Source: Actinomycetospora corticicola
GTDB lineage: Bacteria; Actinomycetota; Actinomycetes; Mycobacteriales; Pseudonocardiaceae
Direction: 5' to 3'
DNA: 64,000 nt
Assembly (NCBI RefSeq): GCF_013409505.1
Contig: NZ_JACCBN010000001.1
Coordinates: 992,001 to 1,056,000, forward strand
This document shows, one piece after another, positions 4,338 to 54,638 of the stretch. How positions within the stretch are numbered: the first letter of the stretch is position 1; the number at the start of each line of letters is the position of its first letter. Below the pieces are notes generated by a model. That model did not search any database. It was not told the origin of the DNA and worked only from the letters and a program-made list of their open reading frames with translations. The translations under genes were made by a program, and so were the position numbers.

Positions 4338-5975
4338 GTGACGGTGCTCCTCGTGGTCGTCGGCGCCATGTCCGCCGCCGTGCTCCTGGCGGGGGCGGGC
4401 GACCGGTTGCGGCTGCCCTGGCCGGTCCTGCTCCTGCTGCTCGGCGCGGCGGCGGCCTTCGTGCCGGGGATCGAGGCCCCGGACATCGACCCGGAACTGA
4501 TCCTCCCGCTGTTCCTCCCGCCGCTGCTCTTCGCGACCGCGCAGCGCACCTCGTGGGCGCTGTTCCGCCAGCGCTGGCGGGCGATCGCCTTCCTCGCCGT
4601 GGGCCTCGTGGTGGCGACGGTGGCAGCGGTGGCGGGCACGCTGGTCGCCCTCACCGCGGTGCCGGTGGCCGCGGCGCTCGCCCTCGGCGCCGCCGTCGCC
4701 CCGCCCGACCCGGTCGCGGTCGAGGCCGTCGCCGGACCGCTGCGGGTGCCGCGCCGCCTCGTCGCGACCCTGCAGAGCGAGGGGCTGTTCAACGACGCCA
4801 CGTCGCTGGTCGTGTTCACCACCGCGATCGCCGCCGCGACGGCGGGCGGTGAGCTCGGCAGCGGGACGATCGTGCTGCGGTTCGTCTACGGCGCGGTGGT
4901 GGCGGTGGCGCTCGGGTTCGCCGCGGCGTGGCTCGTCCGCCGGCTGCTCGACCGGCTCACCGACGTCGTCGCCGGCAACGGGCTCACCCTCGTCCTGCCG
5001 TTCGCGGTGTACCTGGCCGCGGACGCGCTCGGCGCATCCGGCGTGATCGCCGTGGTGGTCACGGCGCTGCAGGTGCGCCAGCACGCCGACGCCGACGCCT
5101 CCGAGGCCCGCCTGACGGCGACGTCGTTCTGGAACGTCGTCGAGCTGCTCGTGACCGGGGTGGCCTTCGCCCTGATCGGGCTGGAGCTGCGCGCCGTGGT
5201 CGAGCAGGCCGACCGCTCGCTCGGGGAGATCCTCGCGCACGCCGCCGTCGTGTGTGTGGTCGTCGTCGGCGTGCGGGCGGCCTGGATGACGGTGACCTGG
5301 CTGGCCTACGCGCGGCAGGCCGCACGGCGGGGCGAGGAGCGCGCCCCGGCGACGGCGGCGGAGGCCGCGGTCCTGACGTGGGCGGGGATGCGGGGGCTCG
5401 CGACCCTCGCCCTGGCCCTCGCGATCCCGCTGACCCTCGACGACGGGAGCCCGTTCCCCGACCGGGCGGAGCTGGTCATCATCGCCTGCGCCGTGCTCGT
5501 GGTGACCCTGGTCGGGCCCGGTCTGACGCTGCCCTGGCTGGTCCGGTGGCTCGGGCTGCGGGAGGACGACGGGGTGGCGGCGGCCGCCGAACGCGACCTC
5601 GCCCTGCGTGCCCGCCGGGCGGCGCTCGACGAGCTGCGCACCGTCGACCGCGAGGCGCTCGGGGTCGACGACGAGCAGGGCGAGCAGGTCCTCGACGCCG
5701 TGCGCACCCGCTTCGGGCGGATCGGGCGGACCCTCGCGGGCGACGACGTGCCCCGGGCCGGCGCCACGGACGACGACGCCGACGAGGACTACCGCGAGCG
5801 CCTGGCCCGGCTCCAGCGGCGGCGCGACCAGTGGCAGCGCGTGCAGACCGTGGCGCTCGCCGCCGCCCGGCGCGAGGTCGTGGCCGCTCGCGCGGAGCCC
5901 GGCGTCGACCCGGAGGTCGCCGACCGGGTGCTCCGGCGGTTGGACGTGCGGACCCTCGGTGCCGGAGGCCTGTGA
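4338..5975 (+). CDS. CPA1-family Na+/H+ (monovalent cation) antiporter
   Basis: Membrane exchanger of 545 residues with about 12 hydrophobic segments followed by a ~130-residue charged cytoplasmic tail rich in Arg/Glu (from about residue 415). CPA1 signatures include the early LPPLLFATAQRTSW segment, the APPDPVAVEAV motif whose paired Asp/Pro region is the ion site, LFNDATSLVVF (the FND core), and WAGMRGLATLALALAIP near residue 350. Expected role: exchange of Na+ or K+ for H+ at the plasma membrane. GTG start, divergent from the PemK-like gene. Its TGA stop lies inside a 40-bp palindromic repeat (5972-6011) shared with the convergent dihydroxyacetone kinase gene. Confidence 0.88.
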   Translation: MTVLLVVVGAMSAAVLLAGAGDRLRLPWPVLLLLLGAAAAFVPGIEAPDIDPELILPLFLPPLLFATAQRTSWALFRQRWRAIAFLAVGLVVATVAAVAGTLVALTAVPVAAALALGAAVAPPDPVAVEAVAGPLRVPRRLVATLQSEGLFNDATSLVVFTTAIAAATAGGELGSGTIVLRFVYGAVVAVALGFAAAWLVRRLLDRLTDVVAGNGLTLVLPFAVYLAADALGASGVIAVVVTALQVRQHADADASEARLTATSFWNVVELLVTGVAFALIGLELRAVVEQADRSLGEILAHAAVVCVVVVGVRAAWMTVTWLAYARQAARRGEERAPATAAEAAVLTWAGMRGLATLALALAIPLTLDDGSPFPDRAELVIIACAVLVVTLVGPGLTLPWLVRWLGLREDDGVAAAAERDLALRARRAALDELRTVDREALGVDDEQGEQVLDAVRTRFGRIGRTLAGDDVPRAGATDDDADEDYRERLARLQRRRDQWQRVQTVALAAARREVVAARAEPGVDPEVADRVLRRLDVRTLGAGGL

Positions 5976-6011
5976 GCACTCAGTGGGGCTATCGGCCCAC
6001 CGAGTGCTCAC
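5972..6011. repeat. 40-bp palindromic repeat, copy A (terminator-like)
   Basis: Left arm GTGAGCACTCAGTGGGGC, loop TATC, right arm GGCCCACCGAGTGCTCAC; 16 of 18 positions pair. It contains the stop codons of both convergent genes (antiporter TGA at 5973-5975, dihydroxyacetone kinase TGA at 6010-6008). One of five related 18-4-18 elements in the window. A bidirectional terminator role is inferred from its position. Confidence 0.8.
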
Positions 6012-7654
6012 CTGGCGAGCGCAGCGAGCCACACCGTGACCGCCTCCGCCCCGGCGTCGCGGTGCCCCTGGACCCGGTCGCCGAGGTAGGACGAGCGACC
6101 ACGCCGGGGCGCCATCGTCTCGGTCGACGCCGCACCCTTCCGGGCGGCGTCGAGGGCGTCCGACGCGGACCCGGACGAGGCGAGCGTGGACGCCGCGGGC
6201 AGCAGGGCGTCGAGCATCGTGCGGTCCCCGGCCTTCGCCCCGCCGAGGTCGGAGACGCCGTCGGCGGCCGCCTGCAGCGCCGTCGCCCAGGTCCCGCCGT
6301 CGGCCAGGTGCTCCGCCGCGTGCAGCAGCCCCGTCGCGTAGAGCGGGCCGGAGGTGCCGCCGATCGCCCGCCGCAGGGTGGCGGCCAGCCCCTGGAGCAC
6401 CGCCACCGGGTCGTCCCAGCGGTAGGAGTCGAGCGCGTCGGTGATCGCGTCCGCCCCGCGGTTCAGCGAGGTGCCGAGGTCGCCGTCGCCGGTGGCGGTG
6501 TCCAGCTCGGTGAGGTGCGGCTCGGCCTCGCGGACCGCCGCGCACACGGCCTCGACCGCGTCCCGCATCCCCTCCGGCGCCGCGACCCCCGAGGACGTGG
6601 CCGCCGCCGCCTCCTCGGGGGCGTCCGGCACCAGCGCCACCCCGTCGGCCACGACGCCCGCGCCGGACGGCCACGCCGCCGAGCGGGCCGGGGCGTCGAG
6701 CAGCTCCAGGCGCGCGTCGTCGAGCCCGAGGACGGCGACGGAGAAGCCGGCCATGTCGATCGAGGACAGGAACGTGCCGGCCCAGGCCCGCTCCACGGTC
6801 ACGTCCCGCGCCGCCAGGTGCTCGAGCGCCCGGCGCAGCAGGATCGACAGCTCCATCGGCGGCGTCGCCCCCGTGCCGTTGACCAGCACCGCGACCCGGT
6901 CGCCCGCGCCGAAGCCGCGGTCGTCGCAGACGGTGTCGAGCACCTCGTCGACGAGCTCGTCGGCCGGGCGCAACGACTCGCGCCGCACCCCCTGCTCGCC
7001 GTGGATGCCCAGGCCGATCTCGATCTGGTCGGCCTCGAGGACGAAGCCGGGCTCACCCGCCGTCGGGACGGTGGCGGCCGAGAGCGCGACCCCCATCGTG
7101 CCCACCGCCGCCGCGGCGTCCCGAGCGGTCCGGGCCACCTCCTCCAGGGACGCCCCCGCGTCGGCGGCCGCGCCCGCCACCTTCGTCACGAACACCGTCC
7201 CGGCGAGACCGCGGCGCCCGGCGGTGACGTCGTCGTCGGCGTCGAGGGCGACGTCGTCCGCGACCGTCACCATCTCGCACGCGATCCCCTCGGCCCGGGC
7301 GAGCTGGGCGGCGAGCCCGAAGTTGAGCCGGTCGCCGGTGTAGTTCATGACGACGAGCAGCACCCCCGGGTGGTCGCGGAAGGCGCGGATGCCGGAGAGC
7401 ACGGCGTCGGCGGAGGGGGAGGCGAACACCTCGCCGCACACCGCGCCGGCGAGGTGGCCCGGGCCGACGTAGCCGGCGTGGGCGGGTTCGTGGCCCGAGC
7501 CGCCACCGGAGAGCACCGCGACCCGATCCGTCGGCAGGTCCGTCCGGACGAGCACGGTGGTGCCCTCGACGAGGGCCGCGCCCGGGGTGGACCGGACCAC
7601 GCCCTCGAGCGCCTGGCCCACCACGTCCCCGGCGTCGTTGATCAGCTTCTTCAC
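6008..7654 (-). CDS. dihydroxyacetone kinase, DhaK-DhaL fusion
   Basis: Single-chain kinase of 548 residues phosphorylating dihydroxyacetone (or a related triose). DhaK part: residues 1-~330, with LSGGGSGHEPAHAGYVG at 49-64 and the substrate-binding His218 in GLGIHGEQG that forms a hemiaminal with the ketone. DhaL part: from about residue 365, with TGDGDLGTSLNRG, GGTSGPLYATGLL, GGAKAGDRTMLDAL and GRSSYLGDR, the Mg-ATP site. GDGDLG replaces the GDGDHG seen in many DhaL subunits. The fusion is the ATP-dependent type, not the PTS-dependent three-subunit type. GTG start at 7654. The stop is inside palindromic repeat copy A. No PTS DhaM gene is adjacent. Confidence 0.9.
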   Translation of the reverse strand: MKKLINDAGDVVGQALEGVVRSTPGAALVEGTTVLVRTDLPTDRVAVLSGGGSGHEPAHAGYVGPGHLAGAVCGEVFASPSADAVLSGIRAFRDHPGVLLVVMNYTGDRLNFGLAAQLARAEGIACEMVTVADDVALDADDDVTAGRRGLAGTVFVTKVAGAAADAGASLEEVARTARDAAAAVGTMGVALSAATVPTAGEPGFVLEADQIEIGLGIHGEQGVRRESLRPADELVDEVLDTVCDDRGFGAGDRVAVLVNGTGATPPMELSILLRRALEHLAARDVTVERAWAGTFLSSIDMAGFSVAVLGLDDARLELLDAPARSAAWPSGAGVVADGVALVPDAPEEAAAATSSGVAAPEGMRDAVEAVCAAVREAEPHLTELDTATGDGDLGTSLNRGADAITDALDSYRWDDPVAVLQGLAATLRRAIGGTSGPLYATGLLHAAEHLADGGTWATALQAAADGVSDLGGAKAGDRTMLDALLPAASTLASSGSASDALDAARKGAASTETMAPRRGRSSYLGDRVQGHRDAGAEAVTVWLAALAR

Positions 7655-7775
7655 GCCGACGGGTTACCCGCGACGGTCACCCGTTCAGCCTCGACGTCAC
7701 CCCGTTGCGGTCGAACCGGTGGGTGTAGCCCGGACGGATCCTGGCAATGAGAACGTCCGCGACGACAGGAGGCCG

Positions 7776-8435
7776 ATGGGGATCCAGCTCGGGCCCGCCA
7801 CGGGAGCCCACCGTGCGGTGCGCCCCGGACCGTCGTGGCCCCGGATCGCCCTCGGGGCGGTCGCCCTGGTCGCGCTCGGCGTCGTCGTCGGTCTGCTCGT
7901 GGCCCCCCGTGCCCCCGAGGTCACCGTCCCCGCGCCGAGCACCGTGGTGACCTCGCCCGTCTCCTCGGCCCCGGCGAGCTCGCACCCGACGATGCTCGGT
8001 CAGGTGGTCCGGGTCGACTCCGGCGACGAGGTCGTGGTGCGGGTCGGCGACTCGGAGGCCGTCGTCGCCGTGCTCGGGATCAGCGCGCCCCGGTCGGCCG
8101 GCGCCCAGCGGGCGACGGGGGAGTGCGGCGCCGCCGAGGCGCTGCGGTTCGCCGACCGGACCCTGTCCGGGCAGACGGTCACGCTCGTGCCGGACCCGAC
8201 CGTCCCCGAGGTCGACGACGCCGGCCGCCGCCTCGCCTACGTCGTGCTGCCCTCGCAGCTCAGCTACACCGACGCGGCGCTGCTCGCGGGTGTCGTCGCC
8301 GCGGACACCACCCGCAGGCTCTGGTACGCGCCGGTCTTCGCCCGCGAGCAGGCCGAGGCCGTCGCCGACGACCGCGGCATCTGGGGTGCCCCGTGCCGCG
8401 CCGAGCCGGGGCAGCCCTTCCCGGCGGAGCGCTGA
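7776..8435 (+). CDS. membrane-anchored staphylococcal-nuclease-fold protein, probably inactive
   Basis: Protein of 219 residues starting at an ATG with CAGGAGG in good position. A hydrophobic anchor lies at about 24-45, followed by a Pro/Ser/Thr spacer and an SNase-like domain from about residue 73 (VVRVDSGDEVVVRVGDSEAVVAVLGISAPRS, later DDAGRRLAYVVLP, YTDAALLAGVVAA and an RGIWG end). In active SNases the corresponding segment reads like RLIGIDTPE; here Arg, Asp and Glu are replaced, so catalysis is doubtful. Two Cys (in GECGAAEAL and APCRAE) could form a disulfide outside the cell. Role unknown; calling it a nuclease would overstate the evidence. Confidence 0.6.
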   Translation: MGIQLGPATGAHRAVRPGPSWPRIALGAVALVALGVVVGLLVAPRAPEVTVPAPSTVVTSPVSSAPASSHPTMLGQVVRVDSGDEVVVRVGDSEAVVAVLGISAPRSAGAQRATGECGAAEALRFADRTLSGQTVTLVPDPTVPEVDDAGRRLAYVVLPSQLSYTDAALLAGVVAADTTRRLWYAPVFAREQAEAVADDRGIWGAPCRAEPGQPFPAER

Positions 8436-8489
8436 GGCTTCCCGACGACGGGTCGGTGCGGGTCGGTGCGGGTCGGTCATGATGTCCCC

Positions 8490-8768
8490 ATGCCCGAGAT
8501 GCACGTCCGCCTCCGCCGGCCCGACGGCACCACCGAGCGGGTGTACTCGCCGTCGCTGGTGCTCGCCGAGTACCTCGAGGAGGGCACCATGTACCCGCTC
8601 GATGACTTCGGGCGCCGGACCCGCGCGGCGTTGACCGAGGCGAGCGAGCGCGTGCGGGCGAAGTACGGCTTCCCGTGCAGCCGCGCGGCCGCCTCCCTGG
8701 CCGGCGTCGAGGCGCGCCTGGCCCGGCAGACCGGCGGCGGGGTGCTGGTCGAGGCGATCGAGCGCTAG
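8490..8768 (+). CDS. MSMEG_0570-family nitrogen-starvation response protein
   Basis: Small protein of 92 residues. It matches the MSMEG_0570 family by its MPEMHVRLRRPDGT start, the YSPSLVLAEYLEEGTMYPLDDF core and the ASERVRAKYGFPCSRAAAS segment. In other actinobacteria the family belongs to a gene cluster induced by nitrogen limitation; here none of that cluster is adjacent, so it is an orphan copy. The ATG at 8490 is chosen because family similarity begins there. Its TAG stop shares a CTAG tetramer with the TAG of the convergent kinase gene (3-bp overlap of the two genes). Biochemical function is not known. Confidence 0.75.
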   Translation: MPEMHVRLRRPDGTTERVYSPSLVLAEYLEEGTMYPLDDFGRRTRAALTEASERVRAKYGFPCSRAAASLAGVEARLARQTGGGVLVEAIER

Positions 8769-11172: not shown

Positions 11173-11196
11173 CCCGCATCCGCCCGGGCCCTCGTC

Positions 11197-18478: not shown

Positions 18479-18490
18479 TCGTCCTGCAGC

Positions 18491-18533
18491 GAAGGGCCCC
18501 TCCAGTCGATCCACTCGACCGGAGGGGCCCTTC
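18491..18533 (+). terminator. terminator of the DUF2188 gene
   Basis: Perfect 13-bp arms GAAGGGCCCCTCC and GGAGGGGCCCTTC around a 17-nt loop that itself holds a 5-bp stem (GTCGA/TCGAC). It is followed by a T-containing run (GTTCGTT). Confidence 0.85.
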
Positions 18534-18560
18534 GTTCGTTCCGGGCCCACCCACGACGAA

Positions 18561-27278: not shown

Positions 27279-27776
27279 GTGAGCACCCGTGGCGTGGTCT
27301 ACGTCCACTCGTCGCCGCCTGCGGTCAATCCGCACGTCGAGTGGGCCATCTCGGGCGTCCTGGACGCCCGTGTTCAGCTGGACTGGAGCAAGCAGGAAGC
27401 CGCTCCCGGCCAGATGCGAGCCGAATGCTCCTGGACGGGGCCCGTCGGCACCGCTGCGCGGCTCGTGAGCGCGCTGCGGGCCTGGGGCATGCTCCGGTTC
27501 GAGGTCACCGAGGACCCGAGCCCCGGCACCGACGGCGAGCGGTACTCGCACGTGCCCGGCCTGGGGCTCTGGCACGGCCGCACGAGCGCCAACGGCGACG
27601 TCGTCATCGGCGAGGACCAGCTGCGCTCGGCCATGGCCGCCGCGCGCCGGACCGGGCCCGACGCCCTCCACCACCGCCTCGACGAGCTCCTCGGCCGCCG
27701 GTGGGACGACGCGCTGGAGCCCTACCGCTTCGCCGGCGAGGGCGCGGCCGTGGGGTGGCTCCACCAGGTCGGCTGA
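27279..27776 (+). CDS. DUF3145 family protein
   Basis: Conserved actinobacterial protein of 165 residues with no known activity. Recognised by its STRGVVYVHSSPPAVNPHVEWAISGVLD start and the internal ARVQLDWSKQEAAPGQMRAECSWTGPVGTAARLVSALRAW segment. The GTG start at 27279 has GGAGG about 8 nt upstream. Members of this family are often found close to fabF in other actinobacteria (recollection, not checked); here it lies 1.7 kb beyond the fabF end, separated by a hypothetical gene and a repeat-flanked gene. Likely cytoplasmic: no signal or membrane segment. Confidence 0.85.
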   Translation: MSTRGVVYVHSSPPAVNPHVEWAISGVLDARVQLDWSKQEAAPGQMRAECSWTGPVGTAARLVSALRAWGMLRFEVTEDPSPGTDGERYSHVPGLGLWHGRTSANGDVVIGEDQLRSAMAAARRTGPDALHHRLDELLGRRWDDALEPYRFAGEGAAVGWLHQVG

Positions 27777-27798
27777 GCCGGGCTGGTTCGATGGGTCC

Positions 27799-28383
27799 AT
27801 GCGACTCCTGCGGCCCGCGGTGACCGTGCCGATCGCCCTGGTGCTGGTGCTCGCAGCGCTCGGGACGGTCGCGGCGCTGCTCGCCGCCCGCGCCGCCGAC
27901 ACGGCCCGCGACGCCCTCGGCGACACCGGTCCCGCGCTCGCCGGCATCGCTCTTCCCGACGACGGGTCGGCGGGCCCGCCCACCGTCGCGCTCTCGCCCT
28001 CCGCGGCCCTCTTCCCCCGCGCGGCCGAGATCCGCGACCTCGTCGCGAAGCAGGTCGAGGCCCGCAACGCCGACGACTACGTGGGCTGGGTGGCCACCTC
28101 GTCGGCGACCTCGGTCGCGGGGGTCTCACAGGCGCAGTTCGCCGACCGGAACCGGACCGTGAAGATCGGTTCGGTGATCCTGCGGCGCATCGATCCGGTC
28201 GGCGGGGGCGAGTACGTCGTCCCGACCGGCTGGATCACCACCCAGGACCCCGCCGCCGCCCCGCCGGACGTGCCGGCCGCGCGGTTGTGCTGGCAGGTGT
28301 CGCTGACGGTCGTGACCGAGCGGGGGGAGCTCAAGCTCGTCGACCCGGCGGCGGGCAGTTCGTTGCGGACTCCCTGTGGCTAA
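27799..28383 (+). CDS. secreted or membrane-anchored protein of unknown function
   Basis: Protein of 194 residues with one N-terminal hydrophobic helix (about 8-32, VTVPIALVLVLAALGTVAALLAA) and an extracytoplasmic remainder. The segment AAEIRDLVAKQVEARNADDYVGWVATSS looks like the first helix of an NTF2-like/Mce-associated fold, but this is a weak resemblance. A single Cys pair (LCWQVSL and the terminal PCG) could form a disulfide. It follows the DUF3145 gene by 22 bp in the same direction and ends in TAA just before palindromic repeat copy B. Confidence 0.6.
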   Translation: MRLLRPAVTVPIALVLVLAALGTVAALLAARAADTARDALGDTGPALAGIALPDDGSAGPPTVALSPSAALFPRAAEIRDLVAKQVEARNADDYVGWVATSSATSVAGVSQAQFADRNRTVKIGSVILRRIDPVGGGEYVVPTGWITTQDPAAAPPDVPAARLCWQVSLTVVTERGELKLVDPAAGSSLRTPCG

Positions 28384-28389
28384 CGCCTT

Positions 28390-28429
28390 GTGAGCACTAA
28401 CGGTCGCTATCGCGACCGTTAGTGCTCAC
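28390..28429. repeat. 40-bp palindromic repeat, copy B (perfect)
   Basis: Arms GTGAGCACTAACGGTCGC and GCGACCGTTAGTGCTCAC are perfectly complementary (18/18) around TATC. The right arm carries the TAA stop of the minus-strand gene at 28419-29378, whose last residues (GEH) are encoded by the repeat and its flank. Confidence 0.9.
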
Positions 28430-29378
28430 CTGCGCAGCGCGCACACGGGACGAACGGCTGGTCCCAGCCGAGCTGGACGAGGCGGCTCCAGATCAGCCGG
28501 GCGGTCGTGCAGCTGCAGTCGTGGACCTCCTCCCACCCGAAGGTCATCCGCCCCCGGCCCTCGAGCTCGGCCGCGTTGTCCCGCGCCCGGTCGCTCCGCG
28601 CGGTCCTGCGGGTGGCGTGCGTGATCCAGCCGTCGAGACGCACGGTGAGTGTGCCGAGTGGCATGCGGTACTCGACGTCCTCGTAGCGGTTCGTGTCCTC
28701 CACCCGATGGTGCACCTGACGGACGCCGGTGGGGAGCTGGTGGGCCTGCTCGATGTCGGTGGCGTACTCGGCCTCGAGCACGGACCCCACGCCGTCCACC
28801 AGGAGCCGCGCGGCGGCCAGGAGAGCCTTCCCGTAGCGGCGGGGCGGTCGGAGCTCGAGGAACTCCAGGATCTTCTCGGGAGGGACCCTCGACGCCGCCG
28901 CACCTGCCGTCAGGACCCGCATGCCCTCCTTCGCGGTCGGTGCCTCTACGGAGAGGTCGACGAGGGTGACGACCGCCGACGTGACCGGGAGACCGCCACG
29001 CTCCACGCCGAGATGGGCGAAGGCGCGACTGCGGTGCACAACCAGGTTCGCGCAGCCGCGGGCCGAGGACCCGTAGGGCACGGTCACGTGCACGGGCCCG
29101 TCGTCCCGGCCGCCGCGCAGTCCGAGCACGGCGGCCGCGGACCCATGGCTCAGGAGGACGGGACCGCGCACGAAGAGCAGGGCAGCCCACCGCCACATCA
29201 TGGGGGTGGGAGGGCCCGTGACGAGCGCGTACACCCCGTGCAGGAGCGGCACCCAGCGCCGGGCTGCCACGTTCGCGCGGATCGCGCTGCGCGTGAAGCC
29301 CTGCGCCAGGAGCTGCCGGAGGCTCGCCACCTCGTGCTGATCACGCCGGAGCCGCTGCCATGCGTCGAGTTCGTCCAC
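28419..29378 (-). CDS. AbiEi-like N-terminus with Vsr/DUF559-like endonuclease C-terminus
   Basis: Protein of 319 residues. The N-terminal ~90 residues look like the winged-helix antitoxin domain of AbiEi-type proteins (LLAQGFTRSAIRANVAARRWVPLLHGVYAL). The C-terminal ~120 residues resemble the actinobacterial DUF559/Vsr-like PD-(D/E)xK fold: VLEAEYATDIEQAHQLP, RLDGWITHATRRTARSDRARDNAAELEGRGRMTFGWEEV. Key acidic residues are only partly recognisable, so nuclease activity is uncertain. A CxC and CxxC near the end might bind zinc. GTG start at 29378. The gene is bracketed by palindromic repeats B and C and sits between the fab operon and the DUF3145 pair. Confidence 0.6.
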   Translation of the reverse strand: MDELDAWQRLRRDQHEVASLRQLLAQGFTRSAIRANVAARRWVPLLHGVYALVTGPPTPMMWRWAALLFVRGPVLLSHGSAAAVLGLRGGRDDGPVHVTVPYGSSARGCANLVVHRSRAFAHLGVERGGLPVTSAVVTLVDLSVEAPTAKEGMRVLTAGAAASRVPPEKILEFLELRPPRRYGKALLAAARLLVDGVGSVLEAEYATDIEQAHQLPTGVRQVHHRVEDTNRYEDVEYRMPLGTLTVRLDGWITHATRRTARSDRARDNAAELEGRGRMTFGWEEVHDCSCTTARLIWSRLVQLGWDQPFVPCARCAGEH

Positions 29379-29428
29379 ATGGGCTTGGAGGGATCCGGGC
29401 GCCGATCGGTTCCATGTGCCTCCGGCTT

Positions 29429-29468
29429 GTGAGCACTAGAGGTCGCGATAGCGACCTTTAGTGCTCAC
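29429..29468. repeat. 40-bp palindromic repeat, copy C
   Basis: Arms GTGAGCACTAGAGGTCGC and GCGACCTTTAGTGCTCAC (17/18 paired) around GATA, the reverse complement of the TATC loop. The right arm holds the TAA of fabF (minus strand, 29460-29458), so it probably terminates the fab operon. Confidence 0.88.
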
Positions 29469-30720
29469 GTGCGAAGCACAAACTCACGTTGTGCCCGCCG
29501 AAGCCGAACGAGTCGTTCACGGCCGCGTCGAGGGAGATCTTCCGCGCCTCGCCGGACACCACGTCGAGCGCGACGTCGCCGTCGAGGTCGGTGAGGTTGG
29601 CGGTCGGCGGGACGAGGCCCTCCTTGACCGACAGGATCGTCGCGATCGCCTCCACGGCACCGGCGGCGCCGAGCAGGTGACCGAGCGAGCCCTTGGGCGC
29701 GGTGAGCACCGGGTGGTCGCCGATCGCCTTGCGCACCGCGACCGTCTCGGCCACGTCGCCGACCGGGGTCGACGTCGCGTGGCAGTTGACGTGCCCGACG
29801 TCGGACGGGTCGAGACCCGCCGTCCGGAGGGCCGCCGCGATGGCGCGGGACTGGCCCGTGCCCTCGGGGTCGGGGGCAGTGATGTGGTACGCGTCCGCGC
29901 TGGTCCCGATGCCGGCGAGCCGGCCGTGGATCGTCGCGCCGCGGGCCTCGGCGAACTCGGCCCGCTCGAGGACGACCATGCCGGCGCCCTCACCGAGTAC
30001 GAAGCCGTTGCGCTTCGCGTCGAACGGGCGGGAGGCCTGCGTCGGGTCGTCCCAGTCGTGGGCCATGGTCCGCGCCTGGCAGAAGCCGGCGAGCGTGATC
30101 GGCGCGATGCACGCCTCGGCGCCACCGGCGACGACGACGTCGACCTCGTCCGCCTGCAGCATCCGCCACGCCCAGGCGATCGCCTCGGCGCCGGAGGCGC
30201 AGGCCGAGACCGGGGCGTGGATGCCGGCGGCCGCGCCGAACTCGAGGCCGACGTGGGCCGCGGGTCCGTTGGGCATGAGCATCGGGATCGTCAGGACGGC
30301 GACCTTGCGCAGGCCCTGCTGCTCGAGCAGGTCGTCCTGGTCCAGCAGGGTGGTCGCCCCACCGATGCCGGTGCCGATGATGACGGCGAGCCGGAGCCCG
30401 TCGACCTTGGGCGAGCCGCCGTCGGTCGAGGGGTAGTCGCCGAGGTCGGCGTGCTCCCAGGCCTGGCGGGCCGCGATGATCGCGACCTGCTCCGAGCGGT
30501 CGAGGCGACGCAGCTCGACGCGCTTGATGACCTCGGACGGCTCGACGGCGAGCTGCGAGGCGAAGTCGACGGGCAGGTCGAAGCGGGCGTAGTCCTCGGA
30601 GAGGGGCCGCGTCCCGCTGGCACCGGCCAGGAGACCGTCCCAGGTGGACTGCACGTCTCCGCCGAGCGGGGTCGTCGCTCCCATCCCGGTGACGACGACC
30701 CCCTGGCCGGCGGCGCTCAC
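29458..30720 (-). CDS. fabF: beta-ketoacyl-ACP synthase II
   Basis: Condensing enzyme of 420 residues that elongates acyl-ACP with malonyl-ACP in type II fatty-acid synthesis. The catalytic triad is clear: Cys174 in SACASGAEA, His314 in NCHATST, His348 in GSLGHLLGAAG, with the KAS Lys next to it (PKGSLGH). The protein starts VVVTGMGATTPLG. GTG at 30720-30718 overlaps the acpP TGA (GTGA). It is the last gene of fabD-fabH-acpP-fabF. The C-terminal residues after the KAS core (CFAREH) and the stop are encoded within repeat copy C and its flank, suggesting that the repeat re-shaped the gene's 3' end. Confidence 0.96.
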   Translation of the reverse strand: MSAAGQGVVVTGMGATTPLGGDVQSTWDGLLAGASGTRPLSEDYARFDLPVDFASQLAVEPSEVIKRVELRRLDRSEQVAIIAARQAWEHADLGDYPSTDGGSPKVDGLRLAVIIGTGIGGATTLLDQDDLLEQQGLRKVAVLTIPMLMPNGPAAHVGLEFGAAAGIHAPVSACASGAEAIAWAWRMLQADEVDVVVAGGAEACIAPITLAGFCQARTMAHDWDDPTQASRPFDAKRNGFVLGEGAGMVVLERAEFAEARGATIHGRLAGIGTSADAYHITAPDPEGTGQSRAIAAALRTAGLDPSDVGHVNCHATSTPVGDVAETVAVRKAIGDHPVLTAPKGSLGHLLGAAGAVEAIATILSVKEGLVPPTANLTDLDGDVALDVVSGEARKISLDAAVNDSFGFGGHNVSLCFAREH

Positions 30721-30959
30721 GAGTGGGAGGAGATGTAGTCGACGGCGTCGGACACCGTGGTGAGCTTCGCGAGCTCGTCGTCGGGAATCTTGACCCCGAA
30801 CTTGTCCTCGGCCTGGACGGCGATCTCGACCATGGAGAGCGAGTCGATGTCGAGGTCGTCGACGAACGACTTCTCCGGGGTGACCTCGGAGGCGTCGACG
30901 CCGGCCACCTCCTCGACGATGCTCGCGAGGTCGGGCAGGATCTCTTCCTTGGAAGCCAC
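30717..30959 (-). CDS. acpP: acyl carrier protein
   Basis: Acidic four-helix carrier of 80 residues. The phosphopantetheine attachment site is Ser40 in DDLDIDSLSMVEI. Carries growing acyl chains between FabD, FabH, FabF and the reductases and dehydratase encoded elsewhere. It lacks the long C-terminal extension of mycobacterial AcpM, as in Streptomyces AcpP. Its TGA overlaps the fabF GTG; 47 bp separate it from fabH, and AAGGAAAGGAG upstream gives a strong ribosome site, fitting the need for high ACP levels. Confidence 0.97.
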   Translation of the reverse strand: MASKEEILPDLASIVEEVAGVDASEVTPEKSFVDDLDIDSLSMVEIAVQAEDKFGVKIPDDELAKLTTVSDAVDYISSHS

Positions 30960-31006
30960 GGGGCTCCTTTCCTTGACGGGTGCTGCGGGAAGGCTAGGGG
31001 AGGACC

Positions 31007-39085: not shown

Positions 39086-39157
39086 GGGCGCATAGCTCAG
39101 CGGTAGAGCGCCGGCCTTACAAGCCGTCGGTCGCAGGTTCGAATCCTGCTGCGCCCA
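39086..39157 (+). tRNA. tRNA-Val (anticodon UAC)
   Basis: Cloverleaf of 72 nt: acceptor GGGCGCA/TGCGCCC, D stem GCTC/GAGC, anticodon stem CCGGC/GCCGT with a C-T mismatch at its outer pair (27-43), loop CTTACAA with anticodon TAC, T stem GCAGG/CCTGC with TTCGAAT loop, discriminator A. The CCA end is not fully encoded (ACCC follows). Decodes GUA/GUG valine codons. Confidence 0.95.
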
Positions 39158-39321
39158 CCCCTCCGGCGGGGACGCCCGACCCGGGTCCGACCGCTCGCCG
39201 CGAGAATCACGTGGGGCAGGTTGTGGGGCCCGCCGGGATGCCTGGTGTGCACCTCGGCGCGTTCGGCCAGCGGCAACCCGCGGGTGGAACACCGACGGCC
39301 CCGTCGGGCACGGTGGGTCCC

Positions 39322-49666: not shown

Positions 49667-50509
49667 ATGGTCGAGTACAACCACTCCTACGTCGACGTGG
49701 GCGAGGTGGTCCTGCACGTCGCCGAGATCGGTGACGGCGCGCCGGTCCTGCTCGTGCACGGCTTCCCGCAGACCTGGTACTCGTGGACCGCAGTTGCGCC
49801 GCTGCTGGCTGACGCCGGCTACCGGTGCGTGATGCCCGATCTGCGCGGTCTCGGGGACTCCACCCGGCCGCTGCACGGGTACGACAAGCAGACCCTTGGC
49901 GAGGACCTCGTGCGGGTTCTCGACGCGTTCGACATCGAGCGGTGCGCCGTCGTCGGGCACGACTGGGGCGGCGCCGTCGCCTTCTCGATCGCGGCGCGGC
50001 ACCCGGAGCGGGTGAGCAGGCTCGGCGTCGTCGACGTCGCGATCCCCGGGGACGGGCAGCCGAACATCTCGCAGGGCGGTCGACGCTGGCACCATGCCTT
50101 CCTCGGCACGCTCGACCTCCCGGAGGCCCTGATCACCGGGCGGGAGGAGGTGTTCCTGCGCTGGTTCTACGAGCACTACGGCCACCACCAGAAGGTCCTT
50201 CCCGACGATGCCGTGGCCGAGTACCTGCGCTGCTACACCGCCGCCGGGGCGCTACGCGCGGGCTTCGAGCTCTACCGCACCGTGCCGCTGGACATCGCCG
50301 CCAACGAGACGCTGGGGAAGATCGACGTGCCCGTGCTCGCCGTCGGCGGTGCGACCTCCTTCGGTCGCGGCGACGAGGTCGAGGAGTCGCTGCGGCGGAT
50401 GGCGCACGACGTCACCGGCCACGTGATTCCCGACTGCGGGCACTGGGTGCCCGAGGAGAAGCCGCGGGAGCTCGCGGAGCTGATCATCGGACACGTGGGG
50501 CCGTCATGA
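49667..50509 (+). CDS. alpha/beta hydrolase, epoxide hydrolase type
   Basis: Protein of 280 residues. The oxyanion/HGFP motif VLLVHGFPQTWYSW is at 27-40 and the nucleophile Asp99 in VVGHDWGGAVAF. Asp rather than Ser at this place is the mark of epoxide hydrolases and haloalkane dehalogenases. The catalytic His is in PDCGHWVPEEKP near 263. The RxGHHQ-like cap residues are not classical, so an epoxide or haloacetate substrate is possible. ATG at 49667 with GGAAGGG 6 nt upstream. Followed by palindromic repeat copy D and the nitrilase gene. Confidence 0.82.
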   Translation: MVEYNHSYVDVGEVVLHVAEIGDGAPVLLVHGFPQTWYSWTAVAPLLADAGYRCVMPDLRGLGDSTRPLHGYDKQTLGEDLVRVLDAFDIERCAVVGHDWGGAVAFSIAARHPERVSRLGVVDVAIPGDGQPNISQGGRRWHHAFLGTLDLPEALITGREEVFLRWFYEHYGHHQKVLPDDAVAEYLRCYTAAGALRAGFELYRTVPLDIAANETLGKIDVPVLAVGGATSFGRGDEVEESLRRMAHDVTGHVIPDCGHWVPEEKPRELAELIIGHVGPS

Positions 50510-50556
50510 CGACGGGTCTCGCCGACTCAGCGCGCCACGAGGTGCGCTGCGCGCCC

Positions 50557-50596
50557 GTGAGTACTTTTCCGTGCCAGGGCACGGATGAGTACTCAC
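50557..50596. repeat. 40-bp palindromic repeat, copy D (variant GTGAGTACT)
   Basis: Arms GTGAGTACTTTTCCGTGC and GCACGGATGAGTACTCAC (16/18 paired, one of the two misses a G-T) around CAGG. It separates the hydrolase and nitrilase genes. Its right flank, CAGGGCGGAGCCACC, contains the ribosome site of the nitrilase gene (start 50613). Confidence 0.8.
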
Positions 50597-50612
50597 AGGG
50601 CGGAGCCACCTC

Positions 50613-51677
50613 GTGATCGAGCCGTACACCGCGGTCGGGCTGATCCCGACGTTCCGGGGCATCCGCGAGCGCGCCGACATCGCGCACAATCTCGAGCACC
50701 TCGAGAGCCTGACGACGGCGGCGTTCTGGCTGTCGAACCTCGACGTCCCGGTGAAGCTGCTCGCCATCCCCGAGGGCGCGCTGCAGGGCTTCAACGACGA
50801 GATCCTCGACGTCGACCACGTCGACTTCGCCCACCACTGCGCGATCGACCTGCCCGGACCGGAGACCGAGCGACTCGGCCGGCTGGCGTCGCGGTGGGGC
50901 GTGTGGATCATGGCGCAGGCGAAGGTCCGGCACCCGGAGTGGCCCGACCTGTTCTTCAACGCGGGGTTCGTCCTCTCGCCGGACGAGGAGATCGTGCTCG
51001 TCCACTACAAGCTCAACGCGCTGCTGCCGGTGGAGCGCTCGGTGTCCCCGCACGACCTGTTCGACTGGTGGGTCGAGCGGTACGGCCGCACGCTCGACGC
51101 GTTCTGGCCGGTCGCGGACACGCCGATCGGTCGGCTCGGCGTCATGATGGCGATGGAGGGCTGCTACCCGGAGAACGGGCGCGGGCTGGCGCTCAACGGG
51201 GCCGAGGTCGTCTACCGGGCCTCGCTGCCGGTGCCGTTCACCGAGAACGACGTCTTCGAGATCACCAACCGGGCGCGGGCCCTGGAGAACAACTTCGTCG
51301 TGATCGCCCCGAACATCGGCGGCTACCACCTCTACCCGGAGAGCCCGACCGCGATCGACGCCGGCGGCGGCCGGTCGATGATCGTGAACCACCGTGGCCA
51401 GATCGTCGGGAAGCAGTTCGACACCAACGGCTCGACGTTCGTCAGCGGCGTCGTCGACATCGAGGCCCTCCGCCACCACCGGGCGTCCGCGCAGATCAGC
51501 AGCTGGACCAAGGACATCCGCGCCGAGCTCGCCCAGATCGTCTACGAGCAGCCGATCTACCCGAAGAACCTCTACCTCGACCGGACTCCGCCCCACCACG
51601 AGGAGTACCGCCGGGAGATCCTGCAACGCCAGATCGACCTGCTGCACGACCGCGACGTCTGGCGGCGCCCGGGCTGA
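50613..51677 (+). CDS. nitrilase/carbon-nitrogen hydrolase family enzyme
   Basis: Protein of 354 residues with the complete Glu-Lys-Cys triad: Glu54 in AIPEGAL, Lys133 in VHYKLNALLP, Cys184 in MMAMEGCYPENG. Hydrolyses a nitrile or amide C-N bond. The insert SVSPHDLFDWWVERYGRTLDAFWPV and the MEGCYPE context set it apart from plant-type nitrilases and suggest an amidase-like member, but the substrate is open. GTG at 50613 with GGGCGGAG upstream, provided by the flank of palindromic repeat copy D. It ends 3 bp before the convergent ribbon-helix-helix gene. May cooperate with the preceding hydrolase. Confidence 0.85.
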   Translation: MIEPYTAVGLIPTFRGIRERADIAHNLEHLESLTTAAFWLSNLDVPVKLLAIPEGALQGFNDEILDVDHVDFAHHCAIDLPGPETERLGRLASRWGVWIMAQAKVRHPEWPDLFFNAGFVLSPDEEIVLVHYKLNALLPVERSVSPHDLFDWWVERYGRTLDAFWPVADTPIGRLGVMMAMEGCYPENGRGLALNGAEVVYRASLPVPFTENDVFEITNRARALENNFVVIAPNIGGYHLYPESPTAIDAGGGRSMIVNHRGQIVGKQFDTNGSTFVSGVVDIEALRHHRASAQISSWTKDIRAELAQIVYEQPIYPKNLYLDRTPPHHEEYRREILQRQIDLLHDRDVWRRPG

Positions 51678-51680
51678 CCG

Positions 51681-52010
51681 CTACGGCTCCCGCGGCGGGG
51701 TCACGTCGAGGTAGCCGCGGATCGCGTCGCGGAGCAGGTCCACCACGGGGCGGCCCTCCTCGATCGCCCGGATGTGCAGCTCGTCGCGCAGTGCCCGGGG
51801 GACCCGGCCGGAGAGGTAGACGAGCTCCTGCCGGGTCGGTGTGCCGCGGTGCTGCCGCCGGCCACGGGGACCGTCGACGGGCATGAGCGGGCTCGGCGCC
51901 GGGGCGAGGGTCGACGTGGGGTCCGGTCGGCGGCGCTCCGCGGCCGGCGGCCCCACCCGACGGCGGGCGCCGGGGTCGGGAGCGGGACGGCGGGGCTCAG
52001 ACGGCGGCAT
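51681..52010 (-). CDS. ribbon-helix-helix protein, partner of ParA
   Basis: Protein of 109 residues. A disordered Pro/Arg-rich N-terminus (~55 residues) is followed by a ribbon-helix-helix at about 60-105: RQELVYLSGRVPRALRDELHIRAIEEGRPVVDLLRDAIRGYLD. Such small RHH proteins serve as the centromere-binding partner of ParA in type Ib-like plasmid partition systems and autoregulate the operon. ATG at 52010 lies 14 bp inside the end of parA. Its probable binding site is the array of 8-bp repeats upstream of parA (52868-52931). No replication gene is nearby, so it is an orphan chromosomal cassette. Confidence 0.75.
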   Translation of the reverse strand: MPPSEPRRPAPDPGARRRVGPPAAERRRPDPTSTLAPAPSPLMPVDGPRGRRQHRGTPTRQELVYLSGRVPRALRDELHIRAIEEGRPVVDLLRDAIRGYLDVTPPREP

Positions 52011-52803
52011 CGAGCCGGACCTCCAGCTGGTCGGCGAGGGTGGCGAAGACCTCGAGCAGCGGCCTCGCCGGGGCTCCGCGCGCCCGGAGGGGCTGGGCGG
52101 CGTCGATGGCCTCGGCGAGCACGGCCCGCGACGGGACCGGGGGCGACCACACCAGCTCACCGAAGGTCTCGGTGACCGACTCGGTGTGCCAGGCGTGCAG
52201 GCCGCGCCGTCGGTCGTGCTCGTTGACGATCACCCCGGAGACGGCGAGGTCGGGGCGACCGAGATGGCGTCGGTAGGCCGCGACGAAGTCCCGGACCCGG
52301 ATCGCGCCCTGCAGGTGGTCGAACTCCGGGCGCAGGACGAGCACCACCGTGTCGGCCGCGGCCAGGCCGAGCTGGGTGAGGTGCCCCAGCGAGGGCGGGC
52401 AGTCGAGCAGCGTCACGTCGTAGTCCTCGGCGACGCCGGTGAGGGCGACGTCGAGGCGTTCGTGGGAGCCGAGCTGGCCGGCCTCGGCGACGCGGGCCTC
52501 GAGGTCGTAGCGGGCCGGCAGCAGGTCGATGCGGGTCGCCAGGTCGGCCGCGGACCCGGTCCACCGGCAGCCGACCAGCGCGTCCGCCGCGCATCCCTTC
52601 TGGTTCGCGGCGACCACCTCGGCGGCGGTCACCATGTCGGTGAGGTCGGCCTCGCCGTAGCCGAGTCGGCGCGACAGGTTGGCCTGCGGGTCGAGGTCGA
52701 CCGCGAGGACCCGGCGTCCGCGGGCCGCGAGGGCCTCCGCCAGGTGTGCGATCGCGGTCGTCTTCCCGGCACCGCCCTTGTTGTTGGCCACGGCGATCCG
52801 CAT
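51997..52803 (-). CDS. parA: ParA-family partition ATPase
   Basis: ATPase of 268 residues. Deviant Walker A NNKGGAGKTT at 7-16 with the signature Lys, Walker A' VDLDPQANLSRRLG, and Walker B-type VTLLDCPPSLG near 128. There is no N-terminal HTH (type Ib-like), in keeping with an RHH partner. ATG at 52803 is chosen because MRIAVANNKGG starts the fold; the open frame upstream runs through the repeat array and is not coding. Forms a two-gene operon with the RHH gene. It is not the chromosomal Soj-Spo0J pair, which lies next to the origin genes. Confidence 0.88.
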   Translation of the reverse strand: MRIAVANNKGGAGKTTAIAHLAEALAARGRRVLAVDLDPQANLSRRLGYGEADLTDMVTAAEVVAANQKGCAADALVGCRWTGSAADLATRIDLLPARYDLEARVAEAGQLGSHERLDVALTGVAEDYDVTLLDCPPSLGHLTQLGLAAADTVVLVLRPEFDHLQGAIRVRDFVAAYRRHLGRPDLAVSGVIVNEHDRRRGLHAWHTESVTETFGELVWSPPVPSRAVLAEAIDAAQPLRARGAPARPLLEVFATLADQLEVRLDAAV

Positions 52804-52867
52804 GCGCCCGCACCCCCGCCCCGACGACCCCCGACCGGCGCGCCAGCGTGGTGCAGCGGGGCCGGGA

Positions 52868-52931
52868 GAGCACAGTGACACCCGCGCACGCGTGCTCACA
52901 AGCACCCGTGCACACGTGCATGTGTGCACAC
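52868..52931. repeat. eight tandem 8-bp repeats upstream of parA (candidate parS/operator)
   Basis: Contiguous units GAGCACAG, TGACACCC, GCGCACGC, GTGCTCAC, AAGCACCC, GTGCACAC, GTGCATGT, GTGCACAC. Consensus GTGCACAC with strict 8-bp phasing and 4 to 8 matches per unit. RHH proteins (for example MetJ) bind directly adjacent 8-bp boxes, so this is a plausible site for the RHH partner. It lies 65-128 bp upstream of the parA start. Confidence 0.7.
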
Positions 52932-53241
52932 GGTGCCGCTGCTCCGAGCGGGGCAACGATCGCGCCACGGCGCGCCGCGCGGCACCCGTCCGTACCAGCG
53001 CAGGCGGGTGAACCGCTTGCGCCGCTTCGCTACCGGGTCAGCATCACCGCCTCGCGGCCCCTTCCGGCCGAACCGCCCGCCGCCTATGGTCCAGCGACAC
53101 CGATCGCCGAGACGTGGCGCAGGCCGGGGACACCACTCCCGCCGCGCCGGCGCCGAGCGCCGTGATCGACGTGCGCCACCCCGGACCGCCCTGCGGCCGT
53201 CGGGGCGACGAACGATGCCCGCGGGACGAGGGGGACCTGTG

Positions 53242-53622
53242 ATGGGGACGAGACCGGCACCGCCGGCACACCACGCGCGGACCGGGGGAAGCATGGACGG
53301 GCTGACGGCGACGGTCGCGACGCTCCCGTCGGCCACGGTGGTCCGGCTGGCGGGCGGTCTGCGTTCCCGGACGGCGACGGTGTTGCGCGAGGCGGTGGAG
53401 GGGGCTCTCGACGGCGGGTCCACCACGCTGGTGCTCGACCTGACCGACGTCGTCGCCGAGGACGACCTGGGCCTCTGGGTGATCCCTGCCGTCGCCGGGG
53501 ACGCCCACGCGCGGGGTGTGGTCTTCACGGTCGTGGCCCCGAAGCGGGCGCTCCGAAGCCGCCTGCGCCGCCTCGGGGGGCGGCCGTTCGACATCACCGA
53601 CGTCCGCCCGGCGGGGTGCTGA
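53242..53622 (+). CDS. STAS-domain protein (anti-sigma antagonist-like)
   Basis: Small cytoplasmic protein of about 126 residues with a STAS fold: LTATVATLPSATVVRLAGGLRSRTATVLREAVEGALDGGSTTLVLDLTDVVAEDDLGLWVIPAVAGDAHARGV. In true anti-sigma antagonists the turn after the third strand reads D-S-(S/T)-G with the phosphorylated Ser; here it is EDDLG, so regulation by phosphorylation at the usual site is lost. ATG at 53242 with GAGGGGGA upstream; ATG at 53293 (GGGGGAA) is an equally possible shorter start. No anti-sigma factor or sigma gene adjoins. Confidence 0.62.
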   Translation: MGTRPAPPAHHARTGGSMDGLTATVATLPSATVVRLAGGLRSRTATVLREAVEGALDGGSTTLVLDLTDVVAEDDLGLWVIPAVAGDAHARGVVFTVVAPKRALRSRLRRLGGRPFDITDVRPAGC

Positions 53623-53701
53623 CCCGGCCCGCCGAGGTTCACATCAGGCAGGGACGGGAGCTGTTCGGGCTGCCTGACGTGACTCTCGCGGTCGGCCCGC
53701 G

Positions 53702-54583
53702 CTACGTGGGCGGCTCGAGGTCGTCCGGGACGCCGGGCCACGGGTCGACCAGGTCCAGGTAGTCCCCGGGCGAGGCGGTGAACTCCGGCGGGCGCTTCTC
53801 GAGGAACGACGTGACGCCCTCGGTCGCGTCCGGCCCGGCGCCGAGCGCGGCGATCACGCGGGTGTCCATCCGGTGCGCGTCCCACGGGGACTCCGCGCCG
53901 AGCATCGACCACATCATGCGGCGGGTGAGGGCGACCGAGACGCCGGAGGTGTTCTCCGCGATCTCCGCCGCGAGCGCCCGCACGGCCGGGCCGAGCTCGT
54001 CGTCGGGAACGACCCGCGAGACGAGTCGGCCGGCGAGGGCCTCGGCGGCTCCGAAGACACGCCCCGTCGCCACCCACTCCATCGCCTGCGAGATGCCGAC
54101 GACGCGGGGGAGGAACCAGCTCGACGCGCCGTCGGGGGCGATGCCGCGGCGCGTGAACACGTAGCCGAAGCGGGCCGACTCCGCGGCGATGCGGATGTCG
54201 GCCGGCAGCAGGAGCGAGGCCCCGATCCCGACGGCGGGTCCGTTGACCGCCGCGATCACCGGCTTCACGCTCGCCGCGATCCGCAGGACGGCGACCCCGC
54301 CGAGGTCCCGCGGCTTCCCGCCGATCGCGCCGCCGGCCTTCAACCGCGCGTCCTGCACCGCCGCGTAGTCGAAGGTCGAGCCGCCCCGGCCGAGGTCCGC
54401 CCCGGCGCAGAACGCCCGCCCCGCGCCGGTGAGGACGACGACGCGCACGGCGTCGTCGGCGTCGGACCGGTCGAACGCCGCGACGATCTCGGTGGCCATC
54501 TCTGGGGTGAAGGCGTTCATCCGGTCGGGACGGTCGAGGGTGACCGTCGCGATCCCGTCCGCGACCTCGTAGCCGATCTGCAT
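53702..54583 (-). CDS. enoyl-CoA hydratase/isomerase (crotonase family)
   Basis: Crotonase-fold protein of 293 residues. The oxyanion-hole segments are GRAFCAGADLGRG near 54-66 and NGPAVGIGASLLLPADIRIAA near 113-133; the position of the catalytic Glu in classical hydratases is not certain here (FTRRGIAPDGASSWFLPRVVG), suggesting an isomerase-like or specialised member. ATG at 54583 with GGAGGCCAC upstream, the flank of palindromic repeat copy E. It lies downstream of the paa operon in the same direction but across the hairpin repeat, so it may have a separate or attenuated transcript. Confidence 0.85.
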   Translation of the reverse strand: MQIGYEVADGIATVTLDRPDRMNAFTPEMATEIVAAFDRSDADDAVRVVVLTGAGRAFCAGADLGRGGSTFDYAAVQDARLKAGGAIGGKPRDLGGVAVLRIAASVKPVIAAVNGPAVGIGASLLLPADIRIAAESARFGYVFTRRGIAPDGASSWFLPRVVGISQAMEWVATGRVFGAAEALAGRLVSRVVPDDELGPAVRALAAEIAENTSGVSVALTRRMMWSMLGAESPWDAHRMDTRVIAALGAGPDATEGVTSFLEKRPPEFTASPGDYLDLVDPWPGVPDDLEPPT

Positions 54584-54598
54584 GTGGCCTCCGGCCTC

Positions 54599-54638
54599 GT
54601 GAGCACTAGCGGTCGCTATCGCGACCGTTTCTGCTCAC
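54599..54638. repeat. 40-bp palindromic repeat, copy E
   Basis: Arms GTGAGCACTAGCGGTCGC and GCGACCGTTTCTGCTCAC (15/18 paired) around TATC. It carries the TGA of paaI (54637-54635) and sits just before the ribosome site of the crotonase gene. Probable terminator or attenuator at the end of the paa operon. Confidence 0.85.

What the first reader, a model, noticed from the sequence alone, without database searches (positions are those of the whole stretch)
5972..54638. A family of five 40-bp palindromes (18-4-18) at gene ends
Copies at 5972, 28390, 29429, 50557 and 54599 all have exactly 18-bp arms and a 4-nt loop. Four start GTGAGCACT; one is GTGAGTACT with both arms changed together, a compensatory change that supports a selected hairpin or palindrome. 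Loops are TATC, TATC, GATA (reverse complement), CAGG and TATC. Four copies contain the stop codon of at least one gene. Outside the palindrome the flanks are also alike: TGCTTCGC-like bases on one side (copies C and E share GCGAAGCACA) and GCCGGAGGC-like bases holding the next gene's ribosome site on the other (copies C, D, E). This looks like a dispersed element that supplies stop, terminator and next ribosome site as one module. I know of no description of it.
Basis: seen in the sequence. Interest (0 to 1): 0.8.

Follow-up and report, generated by a model that had tools for sequence, protein, structure and literature searches.

The report
Nuclease gene bracketed by its palindromes
Short DNA palindromes scattered at gene ends in these bacteria appear to belong to a selfish genetic system built around a nuclease-like protein whose own gene sits between two copies of the same palindrome.

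Summary
The five palindromes are real and belong to a genome-wide family: 68 end-pattern matches, 100 copies in the 0.72 Mb read (reversed control 0). Two of the five bracket a gene (28419-29378, minus) for a protein with an AbiEi-like N-terminus and a C-terminal domain whose best-fitting solved structure is homing endonuclease I-Bth0305I (similarity weak). Bracketing is general: both sides in 27 of 30 genus loci and 52 of 76 loci across Actinomycetospora, Rhodococcus, Saccharopolyspora, Pseudonocardia and others (control windows 25 of 2451). Arms agree around one gene (33 of 36 letters) but differ between loci (19). In 200 genomes, the 7 with a close homologue are all palindrome-rich; 3 of the other 193 are. 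At orthologous sites inner arms differ between species as much as random copies do, while copies within a genome are alike: concerted evolution. I read it as a REPtron-like or homing-like system driven by a nuclease; no RAYT-type Y1 transposase was found in the own genome. Recognition, cutting and copying are inferred, not shown. A terminator role remains possible.

The parts
28419..29378 (-). Gene of the bracketed protein (319 aa): AbiEi-like N-terminus, nuclease-like C-terminal domain
   Evidence: Translation; PADLOC AbiEi 4.3e-15, residues 12-151; whole model pLDDT 94.2, Foldseek 1zel 1.9e-5 and AbiEi 6y8q 4.7e-5; C-terminal 132 residues alone pLDDT 93.0, I-Bth0305I 3r3p TM 0.76 by target, prob 0.96, E 0.18
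29429..29468 (.). Palindrome upstream of the bracketed gene (ends 50 bp before its start codon); also holds the stop of the ketoacyl synthase gene
28390..28429 (.). Palindrome at the 3' end of the bracketed gene, holding its stop codon
5972..6011 (.). Solo palindrome between convergent genes; holds the stop codons of both
50557..50596 (.). Solo palindrome of the GTGAGTACT type between tandem genes
54599..54638 (.). Solo palindrome with changed terminal letters; holds the stop of the thioesterase-domain gene
28430..28445 (.). Right-hand mini-hairpin region of the 28390 copy
29414..29428 (.). Left-hand mini-hairpin region (GCC-TCC-GGC; GGA loop on the other strand) of the 29429 copy
29469..29479 (.). 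Right-hand mini-hairpin GTGC-GAA-GCAC of the 29429 copy
29458..30720 (-). Beta-ketoacyl synthase gene, neighbour of the module, anchor for the locus without it
   Evidence: Pfam
27799..28383 (+). Gene on the other side of the module; its homologue is next to the ketoacyl synthase in 10 congeners that lack the module

Best explanation
The palindromes are the dispersed, non-coding part of a two-part selfish system. The other part is a single gene, bracketed by two copies of the same palindrome, for a protein with an AbiEi-like and a nuclease-like domain. The protein recognises its cognate palindrome (as hairpin, cruciform or duplex), breaks or nicks DNA there or at a related target, and repair copies palindrome sequence from one site to another. 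This spreads solo palindromes, which survive mostly at gene 3' ends, and rewrites existing ones to the type of a resident gene. Shown: the bracketing, its limitation to one clade of the protein, co-occurrence across genomes, presence/absence and inversion at orthologous loci, and concerted evolution of the inner arms. Inferred: nuclease activity, recognition, cutting, direction of copying, and that this protein is the driver.
For: Both-sided bracketing in 27 of 30 genus loci (5' palindrome in 28, 3' in 29; 31st homologue had no locus) and 52 of 76 named loci (5' 64, 3' 61; 25 of the 76 are Actinomycetospora and overlap the 30), against 25 of 2451 control windows. Arms 33.2 of 36 alike around one gene, 19.2 between loci. 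Eight remote paralogues of the own genome have no matching pair; of 13 weaker homologues elsewhere, one has a 5-mismatch match on one side, 12 none. Co-occurrence: 7 of 7 genomes with the gene at E<1e-85 have at least 17 palindrome matches (both strands counted), 3 of 193 others at least 12; Fisher 5e-11. Dispersed types resemble the resident gene's brackets: 0 of 20000 label permutations reach the observed mean over 13 genomes. Inner-arm identity 0.67 within a genome, 0.461 between genomes, 0.468 at orthologous sites, n 60. Empty site 4993539 in two congeners. At the ketoacyl-synthase locus the module is present in 5 genomes, inverted in 4 of them relative to the window, absent in 10. C-terminal domain: I-Bth0305I has TM 0.76 by target and probability 0.96; R2, TnsA, Can2 and Bax1 also rank high.
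Against: No experiment. The nuclease match is weak by E-value (0.06-0.2 for the C-terminal domain, none below 0.001) and Pfam gives no nuclease domain. In 5 of 13 genomes (G000, G006, G007, G013, G015) the dispersed palindromes are on average closer to another genome's brackets, and only 87 of 220 elements are individually best matched by their own genome; shared descent was not controlled there. Three palindrome-rich genomes lack a close homologue. Of the 7 close homologues, two are bracketed on one side only. 12 of 76 loci lack the 5' and 15 the 3' palindrome. The 1e-85 cut was set after seeing the data; of all 22 gene-positive genomes (E<1e-40) only 7 are palindrome-rich. Insertion was not separated from deletion at empty sites.
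Confidence: 0.68

Rival explanations
1. Host transcription terminators: the palindromes are bidirectional terminators kept at gene 3' ends, and the nuclease-like gene merely uses two of them.
For: 58 convergent, 37 tandem, 5 divergent contexts of 100, against 136, 355, 128 for all neighbouring pairs of the same stretches (simple gene caller); none inside a called gene; strong predicted hairpins in all 6 folded.
Against: No U-tract hairpin found near two copies; patchy at orthologous sites (28 of 67 comparisons hold an element); species-wide switching of arm sequence and bracketing of one protein clade are not expected of ordinary terminators; avoidance of genes and promoters also explains the positions.
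Confidence: 0.15
2. Operators of an AbiEi-like regulator: the palindromes are binding sites through which the protein represses itself and a regulon, with no mobility.
For: AbiEi-like N-terminus; the 5' palindrome ends 46-52 bp before the start codon in 18 of 28 genus loci. Binding of operator repeats by AbiEi antitoxins is recalled.
Against: Only 5 of 100 elements lie between divergent genes and most lie at 3' ends; the second copy overlaps the gene's own stop in 26 of 29 genus loci; the module is absent, present or inverted at one locus.
Confidence: 0.08
3. Solo palindromes are deletion scars: the bracketed module moves whole, then recombination between its two palindromes removes the gene, like solo LTRs.
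For: Bracketed modules exist, and the inverted orientation of the gene in 4 congeners suggests recombination between the two palindromes.
Against: 96 of 100 copies read are solos, against 2 modules in the genome; the 65 bp difference at empty site 4993539 fits a solo palindrome arriving or leaving alone. It does not by itself explain type switching.
Confidence: 0.09

Closest known systems
REP elements with RAYT (TnpA-REP) genes, 'REPtrons'
   Same: Short dispersed palindromes; one dedicated gene bracketed by the same palindromes; palindrome type linked to the gene copy (concept read in passages of PMC3733652 and PMC8266576).
   Different: No Y1_Tnp found in the own genome; no constant GTAG tag; 40 bp 18-4-18 core with GTG...CAC ends; bracketed protein of another kind.
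CGTC-tagged REPs
   Same: Dispersed palindromes without a RAYT; PMC3733652 (passages) says they apparently lack a dedicated transposase.
   Different: No CGTC tag; here a bracketed gene is found.
Vsr-like (EDxHD) homing endonucleases, I-Bth0305I
   Same: Similar fold of the C-terminal domain; spread by cutting and copying would work alike; I-Bth0305I is said to dimerise on a target of nearly 60 bp (passage of PMC3943268).
   Different: No intron, intein or recognised cleavage-site insertion; non-coding palindromes spread too; N-terminus AbiEi-like.
AbiEi antitoxins and Rv2827c
   Same: N-terminal sequence and overall structure match.
   Different: Extra nuclease-like C-terminal domain; bracketed by palindromes; a partner toxin gene was not looked for systematically.
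MITEs
   Same: Short non-coding elements with inverted symmetry at gene ends.
   Different: The likely parent is a bracketed single gene; no parent IS was searched for beyond Y1_Tnp, and no target duplication was established.

Membership tests
REP/RAYT (REPtron) | HUH Y1 transposase (PF01797) in the genome | tested here: not met
   0 matches in the own genome; the control rings in 5 of 14 genomes. Congeners not tested
REP/RAYT (REPtron) | GTAG tetranucleotide at the foot of the hairpin | tested here: not met
   By eye on the 100 sequences and those: cores run GTG to CAC with no constant GTAG beside them
REP/RAYT (REPtron) | Dedicated gene bracketed by copies of the dispersed palindrome | tested here: met
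   (gene of another enzyme class)
Homing endonuclease gene | Nuclease fold of a homing endonuclease family | tested here: inconclusive
   C-terminal domain: 3r3p TM 0.76 by target, 0.59 by query, rmsd 3.7, prob 0.96, but E 0.18; catalytic residues not mapped
Homing endonuclease gene | Cuts an allele lacking the insertion and is copied into it | not testable with these tools
   needs biochemistry and genetics
Intrinsic terminator | Stem-loop followed by a U-tract | tested here: not met
   0 terminator-like sites in 27500-31000, which holds two copies; the other copies were not scanned
Intrinsic terminator | Stops transcription | not testable with these tools
   Term-seq needed
AbiE type IV toxin-antitoxin | AbiEii toxin gene beside the AbiEi gene | not tested
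   The window neighbours are a ketoacyl synthase and a gene without Pfam match; no AbiEii search was made
Integron attC | Integrase and GTTRRRY core site (recalled) | not tested
   no integrase search was made

The most novel reading that the evidence does not exclude
A new class of bacterial mobile element: an AbiEi-fused, Vsr-like homing nuclease that targets its own palindrome, converts the palindromes of the genome to its current type and seeds new solos, so that enzyme and palindrome coevolve as a nuclease-driven counterpart of RAYT/REP in several actinobacterial genera.
Probability: 0.5. Interest if true: 0.92.

Novelty: new variant of a known kind. Interest (0 to 1): 0.82.

Why it matters
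As far as I know (recalled, and from the passages read), dispersed bacterial REP palindromes have been tied to one kind of driver, the HUH RAYT transposases, and one large REP class was described as apparently lacking a dedicated enzyme (PMC3733652, passages). A palindrome family linked to a nuclease-like protein of another superfamily would suggest that such genome parasites arose more than once. In-place type switching makes concerted evolution of a REP-like family directly testable. It would also suggest a role for a group of AbiEi-like proteins for which NCBIfam gave no family in the two tested and Pfam only a sub-threshold one.

Tried and rejected
Rfam at gathering cut-offs: only a tRNA in the window. 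Y1 transposase: none in the own genome. A strict 40-mer pattern in named genomes: none (records near the window may be left out). Homologues in viral contigs and plasmids: none found. PDB by sequence: no credible match. GNA mini-hairpins as a feature of the window as a whole: not clearly enriched. A plus-strand reading of the bracketed gene (P0001) was set aside because homologues were found with the minus-strand reading; its own Pfam scan did not run (one search failed). The gene between elements 368182 and 369197, about 1 kb apart, looks like an ordinary membrane-protein gene (label recalled), so bracketing alone is not proof. Ten paper searches (open-licence PubMed Central, no bioRxiv collection) listed no description of this system as far as titles and abstract starts show; this is not proof of absence. 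Passages only were read of PMC3733652, PMC12306157, PMC8266576, PMC12907096 and PMC3943268; other papers were seen as listings.
Full report
What is there. The five palindromes exist as described, with 15 to 18 of 18 pairs formed. The own genome is one contig of 6.17 Mb; the window is its bases 992001-1056000. The end pattern matches 68 times genome-wide and never in the reversed control. In 717,580 bases (window, stretches around hits, and five 19 kb stretches chosen blind) a tolerant scan finds 100 copies and 0 in the reversed sequence; the five blind stretches hold none, so density outside the hit regions is low. The covariance-model search of the own genome scored only its first 150 candidates, both strands counted, and all 150 matched, so its count is a lower bound. 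All 18 genus genomes searched have matches; in the family 25 of 120 genomes do, many weakly.

Anatomy. The 40 bp core runs GTG to CAC, 18-4-18. Outside it, in this genome, most flanks carry a mini-hairpin whose loop reads GNA outward: of 200 flanks of 100 elements, 122 have a stem of 4 or more and 113 of these have a GNA loop; shuffled flanks give 0.4 such on average (at most 3), flanks 60 bp further out give 0. Both mini-hairpins had stems of 4 or more in 31 elements and were identical in 2, which favours local pairing. Against that, the folding program's best DNA structure for the 6 elements tried joins left and right flanks into one long hairpin; it may not reward GNA loops, whose stability in single-stranded DNA is recalled. 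In the flanks of other genera printed such mini-hairpins were not obvious; I did not count them.

Place. With a simple codon-usage gene caller, 58 elements lie between convergent, 37 between tandem and 5 between divergent genes, against 136, 355 and 128 for all neighbouring pairs of the same stretches; none lies inside a called gene (tests). Of 153 flanking 3' gene ends, 71 fall in the core, 72 within 40 bp outside it and 10 further off. The TGA in GTGAG (37) and the TAA in CACTAA (17) are the commonest stops in the core.

The bracketed gene. Palindromes 28390 and 29429 bracket a 319 aa gene on the minus strand. A paralogue (60% identity) at 4769248-4770183 is bracketed by palindromes 4769213 and 4770234. 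Eight remote paralogues have no matching pair. In 18 genus genomes there are 31 homologues at E<1e-30, in 17 genomes. Of the 30 with a locus, 27 have a GTG...CAC 18-4-18 palindrome with at most 5 mismatches on both sides; the other 3 are two truncated genes and one gene at a contig edge. The 5' palindrome ends 46-52 bp before the start codon in 18 of 28 cases; the 3' one overlaps the stop in 26 of 29. Windows elsewhere in the same loci give 25 of 2451, some of which may be real solos. The two palindromes of one gene share 33.2 of 36 arm letters on average, palindromes of different loci 19.2. Over 55 loci, protein identity and palindrome similarity rise together (Mantel rho 0.23; 0 of 300 permutations as high).

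The protein. Pfam gives only sub-threshold AbiEi_4 for the window protein (18 of 22 family members at E up to 0.1); NCBIfam gives nothing; PADLOC AbiEi matches residues 12-151 at 4.3e-15, and the paralogue at 1.8e-22. The whole model (pLDDT 94.2) matches Rv2827c (1.9e-5) and AbiEi (4.7e-5) (aligned ranges not shown). The C-terminal 132 residues, folded alone (pLDDT 93.0), have no match below E 0.001; the top of the list is R2 retrotransposon proteins, TnsA, Can2 and I-Bth0305I, which fits best (TM 0.76 by target, 0.59 by query, probability 0.96, E 0.18). Most of these are restriction-like endonucleases (recalled). E202, E233-D234, D249-G250, H254 and D263 are invariant over 58 sequences. I call the protein nuclease-like on that basis; activity is not shown.

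Co-occurrence. In 200 genomes of the order, the generic palindrome model finds at least 12 matches at E<1e-5 in 10 genomes (both strands counted, capped near 33). The protein profile finds 22 genomes at E<1e-40 (by its tallies the same draw). The 7 at E<1e-85 all lie among the 10; the 15 weaker ones do not. Of the 7 close homologues' loci, 5 are bracketed on both sides and 2 on one; of 13 weaker loci looked at, one had a 5-mismatch match on one side. The other 3 palindrome-rich genomes belong to genus g16, which holds 4 of the 7 carriers. The cut was set after seeing the gap in the data.

Change over time. At the ketoacyl-synthase locus the module is present in 5 of 18 genomes, and its orientation in the window is opposite to that in the other 4. 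In 10 genomes the two flanking genes are neighbours with no such palindrome; in 3 other sequence adjoins the ketoacyl synthase, and two of these (G005, G009) have the bracketed gene beside the other flanking gene nearby. For 12 solo sites compared with 9 congeners, 67 of 108 combinations gave a usable left flank; 28 hold a GTG...CAC palindrome (up to 6 mismatches), 2 more were chance matches with other ends, 37 hold none. In many of the 37 the right flank is missing or far away. The clearest empty site is 4993539 in two congeners, 65 and 63 bp shorter. In 60 pairs of orthologous sites that both hold an element, inner arms are 0.468 identical (best of two orientations), no more than elements of two genomes (0.461) and less than two elements of one genome (0.67). 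Flanks average 0.67 in all 60 pairs; in the 21 pairs chosen for flank identity of at least 0.70 they average 0.82, with inner arms 0.48. At 1272188 the own genome and three congeners (G002, G008, G013) share the mini-hairpin flanks, yet each has another arm type. Dispersed types tend to match the brackets of the resident gene: over 13 genomes and 220 elements (96 of them from the own genome), own-genome similarity averages 29.9 of 36, not reached in 20000 label permutations; 8 of 13 genomes are best matched by themselves, 5 are not, and 87 of 220 single elements are. Elements of G002, G005, G008, G009, G013 and G017 were sampled with a model trained on the own genome or as orthologous sites, those of six others mostly with the generic model. 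Shared descent was not controlled, and brackets may themselves be converted.

Reading. Bracketing, co-occurrence, cognate type and in-place switching are most simply explained by a nuclease that acts on its own palindrome, with repair copying palindrome from copy to copy. It resembles a REPtron in layout and a homing endonuclease in the proposed step, and is filed under neither: no Y1 enzyme, no GTAG, and no shown homing. A terminator effect at convergent genes may be a by-product that helps solos persist.

Noticed in passing
It may mark a lost or replaced gene.
   Followed up: partly
window 18490-18534: Another palindrome, CGAAGGGCCCCTCCAGTCGA / TCGACCGGAGGGGCCCTTCG; a similar one sits at the orthologue of site 221605 in G002. 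Possibly a second dispersed family.
   Followed up: no
own genome: Elements per Mb in the stretches read: 25, 16, 10, 12, 21, 15, 1 from 0 to 6 Mb, fewer in the middle. Sampling followed hits, so only a hint.
   Followed up: partly
L170-L177: Eight remote relatives of the bracketed protein in the own genome (25-33% identity) without a matching palindrome pair.
   Followed up: partly
L184, L197, L199, L205, L194: Homologues in congeners that are truncated or carry a stop, yet keep one or both palindromes.
   Followed up: partly
site 997972 in G008, 820408 in G005 and G017, 4670088 in G013: What look like decayed or shortened palindrome remnants at orthologous sites (by eye).
   Followed up: partly
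own genome 368182 and 369197: Two elements about 1 kb apart enclose an ordinary-looking membrane-protein gene in a tandem array.
   Followed up: partly
window 39086-39159: tRNA-Val gene (anticodon tac).
   Followed up: no
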